64,000 nt of DNA from Micavibrio sp. Its GTDB lineage: Bacteria > Pseudomonadota > Alphaproteobacteria > Micavibrionales > UBA9664. The position numbers were made by a program, and so were the translations under genes. Position 1 is the first letter of the stretch, and each line of letters opens with the position of its first letter. Location: NCBI GenBank assembly GCA_002699085.1, contig PAAR01000016.1, forward strand, positions 1-64,000. The letters run 5' to 3'. Of the stretch, positions 46,845 to 64,000 are shown one piece after another. The notes beneath the pieces are model-generated. The model was not told where the DNA came from. It saw nothing but the letters and a program-made list of their open reading frames with translations, and did not search any database.

Positions 46845-46928
46845 GTACGCGCCCCCACCGCCAATCATCAAAAAACCAGTCAGAGCAACGTGTTCAAGGT
46901 GCGTACCTTGGCGCGTACTCATGCGTAC
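46845..46928. promoter_or_regulatory. GCGTAC repeats upstream of the cytosine methyltransferase
   Basis: GCGTAC at 46901-46906, 46913-46918 and 46923-46928 (about one helical turn apart) and inverted GTACGC at 46845-46850. One copy is inside AAGGT-GCGT-ACCTT. A 6-bp pair AGTCAG (46878) / CTGACT (46929) encloses the three direct copies. Probable operator in the leader of the methyltransferase gene. Confidence 0.4.
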
Positions 46929-46955
46929 CTGACTGCAAAAAAGGAATTTGAATTT

Positions 46956-48152
46956 GTGGATCATCATTCCCTTAACATTTTGTCCTTGTGCGCCGGTGTC
47001 GGCGGACTCGACCTCGGCATCCGAGTGGCGCAGCCAAATGCTCGAGCAGTCTGTTTTGTCGAGATCGAAGCCTTTGCGTGCGAAATCCTGGCAACGCGCA
47101 TGGAAGACAAAAGCCTGGACGAAGCGCCTATTTGGACGGATTTACGATCCTTTGACGGCAAGCCATGGCGTGGCATCGTGGATTGCATCACTGCAGGATA
47201 TCCATGCCAACCATTCTCCGTCGCCGGAAAACAAAAAGGCAAAGACGACCCGCGTCACCTCTGGCCAGATGTGTACAGGATTGTGCGGGAGATACGCCCA
47301 CGGATCTGCTTCTTCGAAAACGTCCCCGGACATTTACGATTGGGGTTTGAACAAGTCCATGATGACCTTCGAGAATTGGGTTACAGCGTTAAGGCAGGCC
47401 TGTTCTCAGCGGAGGAAATCGGTGCATCTCACAAACGCGAACGCCTCTTCATTTTGGCGTACCGTGAAAGCGACCGAGCCAACGAGTGGCTGTCTGAGCT
47501 CAGAGAAATTCAAAGAACGGATGAATGCGGGCATGCCCTTGAGCCTGCGGGATCAGGTGAAGCATCTCTGGCCGACAGTCCGTGTTTCTTCTGCGAATGG
47601 CCCGTGCCAAAAGGAAATCCAGAACAACAATCCGAAATGCCGTCTGGAAGTATCAGTGGTGAATTGGCCGACACCGACGGCACAAGACTTCAAGAAACGC
47701 GGTCCGAATTCATCACAGAAGGGATTGGCGGAGACATCGGTCAACTGGGCAACGCCGAACACGCTGGATCATTTACCTGTGAGATCTCCCGAGGCGATGG
47801 ACAGGCTGATGGGGCCAAATGGCCAGCGTGCAGGCAGATCCCGCCCGAGCAATCTGCGGGAGCAGATCATGTGGCCAACGGTGACCGCTCAGGATTCCAA
47901 GAACAATGCGGGGCCGAGCCAATTTGTGCGGAACACCAAACCATTGAATGTGGAAGCTGTTTGCCATTCCCACCCGGACCCGAAGGTGATTGGGAGGGAA
48001 TCCCAGCCGGTCTTAAACCCGCAATTTGTCGAATGGCTGATGGGCTGGCCAATCGGGTGGACAGAATTCGCGCCTGTGGAAACGGTGTCGTCCCATTGGC
48101 TGCCGCTCATGCGTGGGTCGTTCTTACAACTGCAGCAAATGGAGGAAAATAG
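46956..48152 (+). CDS. dcm: phage DNA (cytosine-5) methyltransferase
   Basis: C5-methyltransferase of 398 residues. GTG at 46956 is chosen because it follows AAGGAA and gives the usual N-terminus (HSLNILSLCAGVGGLDLGI); the frame is open back to 46890. Motif I is LCAGVGGLDLGI and motif IV is GYPCQPFSVAG with the catalytic Cys. Motif VI is FFENVPG, motif VIII GASHKRERLFIL and motif X RACGNGVVP. The region between VIII and X is low-complexity, with repeated LADT/LGNA/VANG phrases, and is also open in frame 1 (see the overlapping entry). It protects phage DNA from host restriction or modifies its own targets. Confidence 0.9.
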   Translation: MDHHSLNILSLCAGVGGLDLGIRVAQPNARAVCFVEIEAFACEILATRMEDKSLDEAPIWTDLRSFDGKPWRGIVDCITAGYPCQPFSVAGKQKGKDDPRHLWPDVYRIVREIRPRICFFENVPGHLRLGFEQVHDDLRELGYSVKAGLFSAEEIGASHKRERLFILAYRESDRANEWLSELREIQRTDECGHALEPAGSGEASLADSPCFFCEWPVPKGNPEQQSEMPSGSISGELADTDGTRLQETRSEFITEGIGGDIGQLGNAEHAGSFTCEISRGDGQADGAKWPACRQIPPEQSAGADHVANGDRSGFQEQCGAEPICAEHQTIECGSCLPFPPGPEGDWEGIPAGLKPAICRMADGLANRVDRIRACGNGVVPLAAAHAWVVLTTAANGGK

Positions 48153-48165
48153 AAACCATGACTGA
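47521..48165 (+). other. overlapping reading frame with WPTP/LNPxFVEWLMGWP motifs inside the methyltransferase gene
   Basis: In frame 1, within the methyltransferase gene (frame 3), an ATG at 47521 opens 214 codons. They read LRDQVKHLWPTV, VVNWPTPTAQD, NWATPNTLD, LREQIMWPTVTAQD and LNPQFVEWLMGWPIGWTEF. These repeated W(P/A)T phrases and the LNPxFVEWLMGWPxGWT motif are well known from phage methyltransferase C-terminal regions. The frame has no stop from 46948 and ends over the start of the next gene. Either both frames are used or one is a relic; sequence alone does not decide. Confidence 0.5.
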
Positions 48166-59536: not shown

Positions 59537-60478
59537 ATGTCACGCGCTTACGGGTGGAATGCCCGCATGTTACTTGGTTTTGAAACCACTTATGGTACGC
59601 CCCCAAATGCGGGGGCTTTTCATGTCATCCCCTTTGTGTCCTCCGATTTGGACTCCGCGCAAGGGTTGATTGAGTCCAATGTTCTGGGATTGGGTCGTGA
59701 TCCCACTGCCCCGTTTCAAGATGTGATCAATGTGGATGGTGATGTTGTTGTACCGGTTGATCTTCGCAATATCGGCTTATGGCTCAAAGCCATGTTTGGT
59801 GCGCCAACCACCACAGGTGATGATCCTTATACCCATGAATTTAAATCAGGGGCAATCACACTGCCCAGTATTGCGGTGGAAGTTGGTTTGCCTGAAATTC
59901 CTGATTTCCCTCTATTCACGGGTGTGCGTGCCAACAGCATGGCGTTTAACTTTGCCAGATCAGGTGAGGCTCAAATCACTGTTGGGCTCATTGGTCAGGG
60001 GGAAACACCGCAAACGGTCACCCGTGATGCCAACCCCAGCCAAGCGGATTACACACGGTTTTCACAATTCCAAGGATCGGTCAAACAAGGCGGTCAGGCG
60101 CTGGGGAATGTCACTTCAGCGGCGCTCACTTATAGCAACAATCTGGAGCGTATCGAAACCATTCGTGATGACGGCAAGATTGATGGCGTTGACCCCGGCG
60201 TTGCGTCCCTAAGCGGAAATATCACTGTGCGCTATGCCGATACCATATTGATGGATGCGGCGCGTGCCGGCACGCCGATTGATCTGGAATTATCCTACAT
60301 CATCGATGCAAATCGCCAGCTGGTCATTGAATGTCATGAGGTTTATTTGCCAAAGCCAAAACGATCCATTTCAGGGCCAAACGGCATTGAAGCCTCTTAC
60401 GACTATCAAGGCGCAAAAGATGCCGTTCTGGGCAACATGGCCACAATCACCCTTATCAACGATGTGGAGACTTATTAA
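59537..60478 (+). CDS. phage tail tube protein
   Basis: Protein of 313 residues. It starts [20 protein letters not shown] and continues with beta-rich repeats; [20 protein letters not shown] and [15 protein letters not shown] are typical of Tail_tube family members. It polymerises into the non-contractile tail tube of a siphovirus. The stop codon overlaps the start of the tail chaperone gene (TAATG). Confidence 0.82.
59599..59620 (+). terminator. hairpin with short T tract inside the tail tube gene
   Basis: GCCCCC (59599-59604), loop AAATGC, GGGGGC (59611-59616), TTTT to 59620: a perfect 6-bp all-GC stem starting 62 nt after the ATG. The T tract is shorter than in the other three intragenic hairpins. 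Confidence 0.45.
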
Positions 60479-61032
60479 TGCTAAAACTCAATATCCAAAC
60501 AGAAGCCTACTGGCTTGAACTGGGTTTGGGCGTGAAGGTTAAAGTGCGCCCATGCACCAGCCCGATTTTCTATGCCGCGCGTGCCTTTATGAACAAGCGT
60601 TTGACGGAGCTTGGCGAAGAATACCGCAAGCGAAAAGAGATCGGCGCATCGATGGAAGATCTTCCTGATGTTGAAAATCCTGAAATTCGTGAAGCGCTGG
60701 CCGAGGAATATCTCGCACGCGGTCTTGCCCGTGCGGCCATTGTTGATTGGGACGGTATTTTGGAATCTGACGGTGATGAAAAAGCACCTGTCACGCCTGA
60801 AAAGATTGATGAACTCATGACAGGGTTTTGGTCTATCGCTGCCAGTTTCTCTCAACAATACACAGGCGTACGGGAGTTGATTGAAGCTGAAAAAAAAGAC
60901 TTGAGCGCCGCGCCGAATGGCACTTCGGAGACGGCGCAGGATACTGCCAAAACTGCTCCCCCAGCGAAGCGGGTAAATTCAAAAAGTCGTGCGAAGACTG
61001 CCCGTTCGAAGTCAACGCACCGGAAAGCCTAG
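60478..61032 (+). CDS. tail assembly chaperone, unshifted product (gpG-like)
   Basis: Protein of 184 residues read without frameshift. The N-terminal domain ([20 protein letters not shown], helix [20 protein letters not shown]) is followed by a second helical part and a basic, low-complexity C-terminus ([20 protein letters not shown]). The position between tail tube and tape measure is that of lambda gene G. A slippery heptamer at codons 138-140 allows a -1 shift to a longer product; the low-complexity tail is the part that would be replaced. Confidence 0.78.
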
Positions 61033-61211
61033 AGGGTTTTCAAGCGTGGGATATTGCTTGTCGCGTATCCCCACAAATCAGAAACAGCTTTCCCTTGTCT
61101 GAAGCTATAAGCCTTGCCTCTGCGCTGGGCTATGACATGGCCGTTATGGGAGAGCTGTTGCCCGCACTATCAACCGGTATCACCAAAGCCTTGATGGCTC
61201 ATAAGGAATAA
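60478..61211 (+). CDS. tail assembly chaperone, -1 frameshift fusion (gpGT-like)
   Basis: Reading frame 1 to 60897 and then, after a -1 shift, frame 3 from 60897 to the stop at 61209-61211, gives about 244 residues. The shifted part is a well-formed domain: [66 protein letters not shown]. Its Cys pairs and ELLP end are typical of the T part of tail chaperones in alphaproteobacterial phages. No good independent start codon exists for this frame, which favours frameshifting. Confidence 0.7.
60891..60897 (+). other. -1 programmed frameshift site (A AAA AAA)
   Basis: Codons GAA AAA AAA GAC (60889-60900) contain the heptamer A_AAA_AAA in zero frame, followed by G. This is one of the most efficient -1 slippery sites in bacteria. 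It lies exactly where the downstream frame opens into the T-like domain. Confidence 0.75.
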
Positions 61212-61222
61212 ACAAACTTACA

Positions 61223-64000
61223 ATGCGTCGTTCTCAAAAAAATATGTCGATCCGTCTTGCCGTGGTGGATGGGAAAAAGGTTGAAGATACCTTTTCTCGC
61301 ATCGGTAATAAAGGACAGCGGGCATTTGAGCGCATTGAGCGTTCTACCAAGCCTGCAAGCGCTGGATTAAAAGCCGTTGATACCACGGCGCGTGCCTTGA
61401 ATAACGTGTTTCGTCAAGCAGCAGGACTTGTGGCAGCTTACGCTGGGATTACGGGTATTCTTGCCTCCGTGCGTTCCGTTAATGAAACCGGTATGGCGTT
61501 TCAGGGATTAGGCACGGCGCTGGAAACCATCACAGGATCAAGTGCTGGCGCACGCGCAGAACTGAAATTCCTTGAAGAACAAGCCGAACGCTTAGGGCTT
61601 AATCTGCTGGAAACCGCGCAATCTTATATGCAGATTGCTGCCGCCGCCAAAGGGACTGAGCTGGCGGGCGATGGTACGCGCCAGATATTCACCGCCATTG
61701 CTGAAGCCTCCACTGTGCTTCAGCTTTCTGTTGATCAAACAAATGGTGCGCTCAGAGCTATCGGGCAAATCATGTCCAAGGGTAAGGTGCAGGCCGAAGA
61801 ATTGCGCGGGCAATTGGGTGAGCGGCTTTATGGTGCATTCCAGCTTGCTGCACGCGGTATGGGCATTACCACGGCAGAGCTTGATAAAATGCTGGAGCAA
61901 GGCCAAGTGGTGGCCGAAGACTTCCTGCCGAAATTCGCCGCTGAAATCCGTAAGACTTTCTCCGATGGTGTGCCTGCTGCCTCGATGACGGCGCGCGCGG
62001 AAATGAACCGCTTTAATAATGTAATTTTAGAGATTGAACGCACTATCGCCGCATCCGGCTTTTTGGATGGTGTGACACAAGGTTACCGCACCCTTAACAA
62101 AACACTCGAAGACCCTGCGGTCGTGGATGCCGCGCGAGAATTAGGGCAAACATTAGGCTCTGCCATTGCAACAGCAGCGGAAGGCCTTGCGTTTCTGATA
62201 GAAAATGCCGATTTGGCTGTCACGGCACTTGGAGTACTGGTGATTGCCCGCACAGTTGCGGGTGCGGTAACGCTTCTCAATGCATCCATTGCAAGTAATG
62301 CAGGATTGATTGTCGGCCTTCACATGGCCAACAGCATTTCCACTGCCTTTGCCATCCGTCTTGTGGCGGTGGAAGCGGCAACCAAACTGGCAACATTGGC
62401 GATGGTGGGATTTCGTTCTGCCTTAATGTTGGTGGGTGGCCCCGTGGGGCTGGCCGTATTGGCTGGTATTGCCGTTTTGAAACTCGCATCCGGTCATGAT
62501 GCCGCAGCAAAAGCCGCCCGTGATCACGCCGAAGAATTAAAGGAGATCAAAGAAGAACTTGGCAAAACCGCCGAAGCCGCATCGGATTTAAGCGAGGCAT
62601 TGAGTGAAAGTGAGAGCGTTTACCGTTTTACCAAGCAGCTGGAAACAGCCAAAGAAAATATCATCGATCTGCAAAAAGAATTAAAGTTCGGCGGCATAGG
62701 TGGGTTTTGGGATCAATTTAGCCGTTTTGGCAAACCTCTTCAGAACGACCTTTACCAAATTCGCCAAGCCTTCAATCAGGGCAAGTTATCGGCGACGGAG
62801 TATTCCGAAGCGTTATTCAAGCTGGCAACCAAATATCCTGACTTCGGTGAACAAGCTGAGGAAGTACAACGCCAAGTTTTTGCGTTACTGGCGGCAGAAC
62901 GTGCCGCTAAAAAAGCCGCCGCCGCGCTGGATGAATTGCGGAATCCAAAAACCAAGAATGCTGCGCCAGATGCTCCAACGCCATCTGCCCCAGCAGAGGT
63001 GATCCCTGAATTATCGGACGCCGATAAAAAACGGATTACAGATCGCATCACGGAATTGCACGCAGAAGAACAAGCGCTTCAACGCTTAAATGCTGCACGC
63101 AATCAAGGCGAAACGGCAGTACGCCGTGCCATGATTGCCAATGAACAGGATCAGGCATTGCGTCGCTTGGGGCTGGATGTCACAGGCGCACAAAGTGATG
63201 AGCAAAAAGAATATGCCCAGCAGATTAAATCGCTGGTGGGTGATATCTATCAATTACAAGAAGCGGATAAAAGTTACCAAGACACCATCCGTGAAAATAA
63301 TAAGTTAGCGCAAGAACGTGAACGGCTGGTTGAAGATGTCCGCCAAAAATATGATGCGCTGGATACGTCTTTATCGGCGGCAATTAAACGTGCAGGTGAA
63401 TGGCGCAGTGAAGCTTTAACAGGTCTTGATAGCACCAAGGCGGGCTATGCTGATTTTGCCGCGCAGGTGGATGCGGTTTATAACGATATGATCGCCAAAG
63501 CTCGTGATGAGGATTTGCAAAATTCGAAACGCTGGGAAGACGGCATTAAACGCGGTTTGCAAAGCGTTATAGATGAAGCCGATGATATGGCGAGCAAAGC
63601 CGAGCGCGGTGTCACCTCTATGTTTAAAAGCATGGAAGATGCGCTGGTTAGTTTTGTTACAACGGGTAAGCTGGATTTTAAATCCATGGCTGATTCCATC
63701 ATCGCCGATATGGTGCGGATGCAAATCCAGTCCAGTATCACAAAACCACTGGCGGGTGCGCTGGGTGGTTTTCTGGGTGATATTGCAGGCTCAATCTTTG
63801 GTGCGCCTGCGGGCGCTGGCACGGCCTCCACAGCCACTGCTCACACTGGTGGTGTGATTGGCAACGACACTTTACGCATGCGCTCTGTCAATCCTGCGGT
63901 GTTTACAGGTGCGCCTCGTTTTCACACTGGCGGTATTGTCGGCAATGAAGTGCCGATTATCGCCAAACAAGGTGAAGCCGTCTTTACGCCAGGGCAGATG
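61223..64000 (+). CDS. tail tape measure protein, lambda family (3' end outside window)
   Basis: Open for 926 codons to the window edge. The ATG at 61223 is used; an ATG at 61244 is possible. The N-terminal tape-measure domain (GQRAFERIERSTKPASAGLK, SYMQIAAAAKGTELAGDGTR, AEELRGQLGERLYGAFQLAA) is followed by hydrophobic segments near residues 320-430 and a coiled coil. The lambda-type C-terminal motif is SMEDALVSFVTTGKLDFKSM...IIADMVRMQIQS. Near the edge, FHTGGIVGNEVPIIAKQGEA is the usual end signature, so little is missing. It sets tail length. Confidence 0.92.
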   Translation, partial: MRRSQKNMSIRLAVVDGKKVEDTFSRIGNKGQRAFERIERSTKPASAGLKAVDTTARALNNVFRQAAGLVAAYAGITGILASVRSVNETGMAFQGLGTALETITGSSAGARAELKFLEEQAERLGLNLLETAQSYMQIAAAAKGTELAGDGTRQIFTAIAEASTVLQLSVDQTNGALRAIGQIMSKGKVQAEELRGQLGERLYGAFQLAARGMGITTAELDKMLEQGQVVAEDFLPKFAAEIRKTFSDGVPAASMTARAEMNRFNNVILEIERTIAASGFLDGVTQGYRTLNKTLEDPAVVDAARELGQTLGSAIATAAEGLAFLIENADLAVTALGVLVIARTVAGAVTLLNASIASNAGLIVGLHMANSISTAFAIRLVAVEAATKLATLAMVGFRSALMLVGGPVGLAVLAGIAVLKLASGHDAAAKAARDHAEELKEIKEELGKTAEAASDLSEALSESESVYRFTKQLETAKENIIDLQKELKFGGIGGFWDQFSRFGKPLQNDLYQIRQAFNQGKLSATEYSEALFKLATKYPDFGEQAEEVQRQVFALLAAERAAKKAAAALDELRNPKTKNAAPDAPTPSAPAEVIPELSDADKKRITDRITELHAEEQALQRLNAARNQGETAVRRAMIANEQDQALRRLGLDVTGAQSDEQKEYAQQIKSLVGDIYQLQEADKSYQDTIRENNKLAQERERLVEDVRQKYDALDTSLSAAIKRAGEWRSEALTGLDSTKAGYADFAAQVDAVYNDMIAKARDEDLQNSKRWEDGIKRGLQSVIDEADDMASKAERGVTSMFKSMEDALVSFVTTGKLDFKSMADSIIADMVRMQIQSSITKPLAGALGGFLGDIAGSIFGAPAGAGTASTATAHTGGVIGNDTLRMRSVNPAVFTGAPRFHTGGIVGNEVPIIAKQGEAVFTPGQM

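What the first reader, a model, noticed from the sequence alone, without database searches (positions are those of the whole stretch)
60478..61211. Programmed -1 frameshift in the tail chaperone gene
A zero-frame A_AAA_AAA followed by G at 60891-60897 leads into a 104-codon -1 frame with a Cys-rich, conserved-looking domain and no start codon of its own. This is the gpG/gpGT arrangement, located as expected between tail tube and tape measure; the shifted domain would be missed by ordinary gene calling.
Basis: partly seen in the sequence, partly recalled or inferred. Interest (0 to 1): 0.65.

Follow-up and report, generated by a model that had tools for sequence, protein, structure and literature searches.

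The report
Frameshifted phage tail chaperone gene
A virus embedded in a bacterial chromosome makes a helper protein for building its tail in two lengths by having some ribosomes slip back one base at a run of A's; the mechanism is textbook, but relatives show its sequence signals kept wherever they are needed and lost in one lineage where the two halves became a single gene.

Summary
G ORF 60478-61032 carries zero-frame A_AAA_AAA at 60891-60897. The -1 frame opens immediately behind a TGA (60888-60890), runs to TAA at 61209-61211, and has no ATG/GTG/TTG in the overlap. The heptamer alone is unremarkable; comparison makes the case. About 115 two-frame relatives, with at least 87 distinct downstream sequences, all have a canonical slippery heptamer directly before the same Arg codon (A_AAA_AAA, A_AAA_AAC or G_GGA_AAC). 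A hairpin with covarying pairs follows 6-7 nt downstream. In the close clade a Shine-Dalgarno-like GGGAG lies 14 nt upstream. One monophyletic lineage (11 sequences) encodes G and T in ONE frame, joined at the same residue, and has lost both heptamer and hairpin: a natural control favouring -1 ribosomal frameshifting over transcriptional slippage or independent initiation. It is a lambda gpG/gpGT-type tail assembly chaperone of a lambda-organised prophage in a Micavibrio-like alphaproteobacterium: a known kind, already annotated in Rhodobacter phages. New details: the T domain has an invariant Cys4 motif and explains 'unknown' families DUF7697 and phrog_11212; the in-frame lineage appears to do without a separate G. 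Efficiency and products are untested.

The parts
59537..60478 (+). tail tube protein gene (upstream neighbour; its stop overlaps the G start)
   Evidence: PF18906 Phage_tube_2 1.7e-58; phrog_290 9.1e-62
60478..61032 (+). G frame: tail assembly chaperone, zero-frame product, 184 aa; residues after the heptamer are a low-complexity basic tail
   Evidence: phrog_313 Tail assembly chaperone 5.9e-22; ORF
60872..60876 (+). Shine-Dalgarno-like GGGAG, 14 nt before the heptamer (candidate upstream stimulator, as in dnaX)
   Evidence: kept in 30/31 close relatives at synonymous sites: Arg132 CGG/AGG 30/31 against 30/260 elsewhere, Glu133 GAG 30/31 against 127/465 elsewhere
60888..60890 (+). TGA that closes the -1 frame immediately upstream, so the shift must occur at or after 60891
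60891..60897 (+). slippery heptamer A_AAA_AAA (within A8 60890-60897)
   Evidence: canonical heptamer at this column in every two-frame relative
60905..60937 (+). stem-loop GCGCCG.GCCGAA-UGGCAC-UUCGG..CGGCGC, 7-nt spacer after the heptamer; the loop encodes the invariant Trp-His
   Evidence: 63 nt from 60898: -23.4 kcal/mol, z -2.5
60897..61211 (+). T frame (-1): 104-aa extension, stop TAA 61209-61211; fused product GT predicted 244 aa
   Evidence: homologues; DUF7697 in 45 of 48 T domains
60945..61001 (+). Cys4 motif of the T domain (C17, C20, C32, C35 of P0001), with an 8-residue insertion between the Cys pairs relative to most close relatives
   Evidence: four Cys invariant in 60/60 aligned T domains
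61223..64000 (+). tape measure protein gene (downstream neighbour, runs off the window)
   Evidence: phrog_1716 6.7e-123; PF20155, PF09718

Best explanation
This is a tail assembly chaperone gene of a lambda-organised prophage that makes two proteins. Most ribosomes finish G (184 aa). A minority decode E-K-K, pause at a stem-loop 7 nt downstream, probably helped by a Shine-Dalgarno-like GGGAG 14 nt upstream. Both tRNA-Lys then slip back one base on A_AAA_AAA and continue with R-L-E-R-R, giving a 244-aa GT protein. By analogy with lambda, many G and few GT coat the tape measure protein, and the T domain recruits the tail tube protein. Shown here: sequence anatomy, conservation, covariation of the hairpin, and coupled loss of the signals when G and T are fused in frame. 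Inferred: that slippage occurs, its efficiency, zinc binding by the four cysteines, and the binding roles of G and T.
For: Gene order and families. -1 frame conserved as protein, with substitutions at its third positions. 49 distinct two-frame homologues plus 73 further IMG/VR loci (7 of them repeats) all have A_AAA_AAA, A_AAA_AAC or G_GGA_AAC directly before the same Arg codon. GAA-AAA-AAA is synonymously invariant in 31/31. Downstream hairpin: 83.8% of cells paired against 37-52% in slid registers; 24 cells changed on both sides against 9.8 shuffled, 0 of 500 shuffles as high. An in-frame GT lineage joined at the same residue has no heptamer at the junction and no hairpin (mean z +0.19 against -1.98 in 87 two-frame sequences, p 2e-7 uncorrected for relatedness), while its sister sequences keep A_AAA_AAC and the hairpin. 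Rhodobacter phage homologues are annotated as joined CDS. Published: A_AAA_AAA gave 10% frameshifting in another cassette and phage tail chaperones 6-7% (PMC3711429).
Against: No experiment. A_AAA_AAA is less shift-prone than A_AAA_AAG in E. coli (PMC5009743). In this one window the heptamer could be chance and the hairpin z-score depends on segment length (-2.5 to -0.7). Within the close clade the hairpin shows only one-sided changes; the covariation comes from more distant relatives with a slightly different stem register. The hairpin region also encodes conserved protein.
Confidence: 0.95

Rival explanations
1. Transcriptional slippage: RNA polymerase adds an A in the A8 run, so some mRNAs carry the T frame in line with G and no ribosomal shift is needed.
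For: The run is eight A's, and insertion of one A gives the same frame. Longer A runs raise apparent frameshifting in reporter cassettes (PMC3711429).
Against: Homologues with the same anatomy use G_GGA_AAC or A_AAA_AAC, without a run of seven or more. A conserved, covarying downstream hairpin and an SD-like element are expected for ribosomes. The 8th A is only the second base of the Glu codon.
Confidence: 0.04
2. T is a separately initiated protein with an overlapping start (translational coupling).
For: Some homologues are annotated as a second short CDS, e.g. 234 nt in Nostoc phage Nsp-JY21.
Against: No ATG/GTG/TTG in the T frame within the overlap. The first candidates, TTG 61095 and ATG 61137, would omit the invariant Arg, Trp-His and all four Cys. 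Many relatives also lack a start there. In-frame fused relatives exist.
Confidence: 0.01
3. Sequencing error or decayed gene: the frame break is an artefact or mutation in the A run.
For: A homopolymer run at the frame transition; the window is from a draft assembly.
Against: The same arrangement occurs in over 100 records from isolates, genomes and metagenomes, with the junction at the same residue. An identical stretch is held in IMG/VR (L022), though possibly from the same assembly. The -1 frame is under purifying constraint.
Confidence: 0.005

Closest known systems
Phage lambda gpG/gpGT and the conserved tail-chaperone frameshift (Xu, Hendrix, Duda 2004, cited in PMC5009743)
   Same: Position between tail tube and tape measure genes, -1 shift near the end of G, long T extension, G_GGA_AA-type sites in some relatives.
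   Different: Here A_AAA_AAA with a conserved hairpin and, in the close clade, an SD-like element; a Cys4 T domain matching DUF7697 rather than a lambda T family; no sequence match to lambda T found.
Rhodobacter capsulatus phages RcKemmy, RcOceanus, RcKvothe and others (joined 'tail assembly chaperone' CDS)
   Same: Homologous G (about 28%) and T (35-37%), joined at the same residue, same gene order, same hairpin position.
   Different: Heptamer G_GGA_AAC instead of A_AAA_AAA; isolated phages rather than a prophage.
E. coli dnaX -1 frameshift cassette (A_AAA_AAG with SD and stem-loop)
   Same: Works alike: A-rich heptamer, upstream SD-like sequence, downstream stem-loop.
   Different: In dnaX the shift yields the shorter product; here it yields the longer one. 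Not homologous.

Membership tests
gpG/gpGT-type frameshifted tail assembly chaperone | gene lies between tail tube and tape measure genes | tested here: met
   PF18906 upstream; phrog_1716, PF20155 and PF09718 downstream
gpG/gpGT-type frameshifted tail assembly chaperone | G belongs to a tail assembly chaperone family | tested here: met
   phrog_313 5.9e-22
gpG/gpGT-type frameshifted tail assembly chaperone | overlapping -1 frame without own start, opening at a canonical X_XXY_YYZ heptamer in the G frame | tested here: met
gpG/gpGT-type frameshifted tail assembly chaperone | heptamer conserved in homologues that keep two frames | tested here: met
   49 of 49 and 73 of 73; two loci, L154 and L156, have a disturbed upstream frame but keep the heptamer
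gpG/gpGT-type frameshifted tail assembly chaperone | T domain homologous to lambda gpT by sequence (not required of all known members, which differ widely in sequence) | tested here: not met
   Pfam finds DUF7697 (45 of 48) and only weak DUF1799 matches; filed as a functional counterpart with its own T family
gpG/gpGT-type frameshifted tail assembly chaperone | GT made at a low fixed ratio to G and absent from the virion | not testable with these tools
   needs expression data
transcriptional slippage site | long homopolymer run conserved across homologues | tested here: not met
   distant homologues have GGGAAAC or AAAAAAC

The most novel reading that the evidence does not exclude
One lineage of these phages has hard-wired the frameshift. 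G and T are a single reading frame with no free G detected elsewhere in three host genomes, so tail assembly there proceeds with GT alone or obtains G in another way. That would contradict the idea that a balanced G:GT ratio is always needed.
Probability: 0.45. Interest if true: 0.5.

Novelty: new member of a known kind. Interest (0 to 1): 0.3.

Why it matters
The frameshift itself is textbook. What is useful: the missing half of an essential tail chaperone can now be annotated in hundreds of phages (568 relatives of the T domain in IMG/VR). Two families listed as of unknown function (DUF7697, phrog_11212) can be named as T domains of tail chaperones. A natural lineage in which the shift was replaced by an in-frame fusion, with loss of both signals, makes the question of why phages need a G:GT ratio directly testable.

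Tried and rejected
Chance heptamer: not excluded by the window alone, excluded by conservation. Fold search of the T domain (AlphaFold2 pLDDT 86) against PDB and BFVD: no match at E <= 0.001. Sequence search of PDB: only designed helical repeats, taken as spurious. The full-length in-frame GT model was weak (pLDDT 64); its best viral matches were a pre-tape-measure chaperone and tail assembly chaperones. Searches for a published in-frame GT fusion or for DUF7697 found nothing in the open library. A second G copy in three genomes with in-frame GT: none found.

Full report
Observation. The window carries a G ORF at 60478-61032 and an overlapping -1 frame to 61211. At 60889-60900 the G frame reads GAA AAA AAA GAC, so A_AAA_AAA lies at 60891-60897 and G follows. 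The -1 frame is closed by TGA at 60888-60890, directly against the heptamer, and then open to TAA at 61209-61211. The frame contains no ATG, GTG or TTG until TTG 61095 and ATG 61137, both downstream of the G stop at 61030-61032. After a -1 shift the product would read ...[18 protein letters not shown]..., 244 residues.

Is it more than chance? On the window alone, hardly. AAAAAAAG occurs 9 times against 8.6 expected, zero-frame slippery heptamers occur at about 18 places in ORFs, and 46% of synonymous redraws of G contain A_AAA_AAR. The evidence comes from relatives.

Context. The order of genes is that of lambda: terminase large subunit, portal, S49 protease, tail terminator, tail tube, G, T, tape measure. 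G matches phrog_313 'Tail assembly chaperone'. The window belongs to a 1.9-Mb draft genome whose prophage relatives lie mainly in alphaproteobacterial MAGs, several called Micavibrio. IMG/VR lists the stretch as part of a viral contig (L022).

Conservation of the site. T-domain homologues were collected from phage records, GTDB genomes, IMG/VR and genomes of the same order. In 49 distinct two-frame homologues, and in 73 further IMG/VR loci (7 of which repeat earlier contigs), a canonical heptamer lies directly before the same Arg codon: A_AAA_AAA in the close clade, A_AAA_AAC or G_GGA_AAC in nearly all others. The arginine requirement of the search fixes only the last base of the heptamer. Two loci (L154, L156) have a disturbed upstream frame but keep the heptamer. 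In 31 close relatives GAA-AAA-AAA never varies, whereas comparable Lys and Glu codons do. In the overlap the -1 frame shows the codon-position pattern of a protein-coding frame.

Stimulators. Seven nucleotides after the heptamer the window folds into GCGCCG.GCCGAA-UGGCAC-UUCGG..CGGCGC; the loop encodes the invariant Trp-His. The same hairpin position recurs across families with different stem sequences. In 33 diverse sequences the 14-pair stem has 83.8% of cells paired against 37-52% in slid registers, and 24 cells changed on both sides against 9.8 in shuffles. The stem register of the close clade is shifted by one in its outer part, and within that clade only one-sided changes are seen. Upstream, GGGAG at 60872-60876 is kept in 30/31 close relatives through codon choices that are unusual for the gene (Arg CGG/AGG, Glu GAG). 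It is not evident in distant families. The three elements together resemble the dnaX cassette (own knowledge; heptamer and shift described in PMC5009743).

A natural control. L065, L067, L068 and IMG/VR loci L073-L083 encode G and T in a single frame of 257-287 codons; in L065 and L067 it lies between the tail tube and tape measure frames. On the tree these 11 distinct sequences form one group (support 99/94), sister to L063/L064/L066, which use A_AAA_AAC; the root is for drawing only. The fusion joins at the same residue as the frameshift product. It has no heptamer in the right phase at the junction, and the hairpin is gone: mean z +0.19 against -1.98 for 87 two-frame sequences (this is one evolutionary event, so the p-value overstates the case). 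Signals that vanish together exactly when the shift becomes unnecessary are best explained as frameshift signals. Genomes with the fused form show no second phrog_313 gene, so how, or whether, they make free G is open.

Mechanism. -1 ribosomal frameshifting is the best explanation (confidence 0.95). Transcriptional slippage on A8 is possible in principle but does not explain relatives with GGGAAAC, the hairpin or the coupled loss. Separate initiation fails because no standard start codon lies upstream of the conserved domain. Function by analogy with lambda: G and GT bind the tape measure protein and T recruits the tube protein, with G:GT about 30:1 in lambda (PMC5009743). Efficiency here is unknown; published reporter values are 6-7% for tail chaperones and 10% for one A_AAA_AAA cassette (PMC3711429).

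T domain. Four cysteines are invariant in 60/60 sequences, which suggests but does not show zinc binding. AlphaFold2 predicts a helical domain with a loop carrying the cysteines (pLDDT 86 overall, lower in the loop) without a known fold match. Pfam DUF7697 matches 45 of 48 T domains and phrog_11212 matches 10 of 11 in-frame GT proteins; both are listed as unknown and can be named T domains. The window's T has an extra 8 residues between the Cys pairs; L053 has an insertion of the same length. It keeps both frames.

Novelty. Already established in kind: joined annotation exists in Rhodobacter phages, the Rhodobacter phage paper speaks of the frameshift 'usually found' in these genes (PMC8601537), and thousands of joined tail chaperones are annotated in SEA-PHAGES genomes (PMC10885494). 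New member of a known kind; the in-frame lineage is the part worth pursuing.

Noticed in passing
window 46890-48152 (+) and 46948-48165 (+): A C5-cytosine methyltransferase ORF (PF00145 8.3e-39, phrog_363 3.5e-62) is overlapped almost entirely by a +1-frame ORF of 405 aa that matches phrog_1008 (2.2e-30) and 90 phage records. In Synechococcus phage Yong-M2-251 both frames match the same DNA, and Paenibacillus phage Tadhana annotates two overlapping CDS. Candidate conserved dual-coding pair; similarity that merely reflects a shifted reading of homologous genes was not excluded.
   Followed up: partly
L065:1084-1848, L067:1084-1866, L068, L073-L083: In-frame G-T fusions of the tail chaperone in one phage lineage, without heptamer or hairpin; no second G gene detected in three host genomes.
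   Followed up: yes
L013: A GTDB contig titled Waddliaceae (Chlamydiota) carries a near relative (81%) of this Micavibrio-type prophage module; probably a mis-binned contig.
   Followed up: no
G070, G077, G116, G119: Several genomes of the order hold two copies of this tail module, suggesting more than one related prophage per genome.
   Followed up: no
L003 (Nostoc phage Nsp-JY21), L004 (Synechococcus phage Sc-Yong805-1): Phages reported from different hosts have identical gene coordinates and match statistics in this region; their T frame is annotated as a separate short CDS from an internal ATG, leaving out the Cys motif.
   Followed up: no
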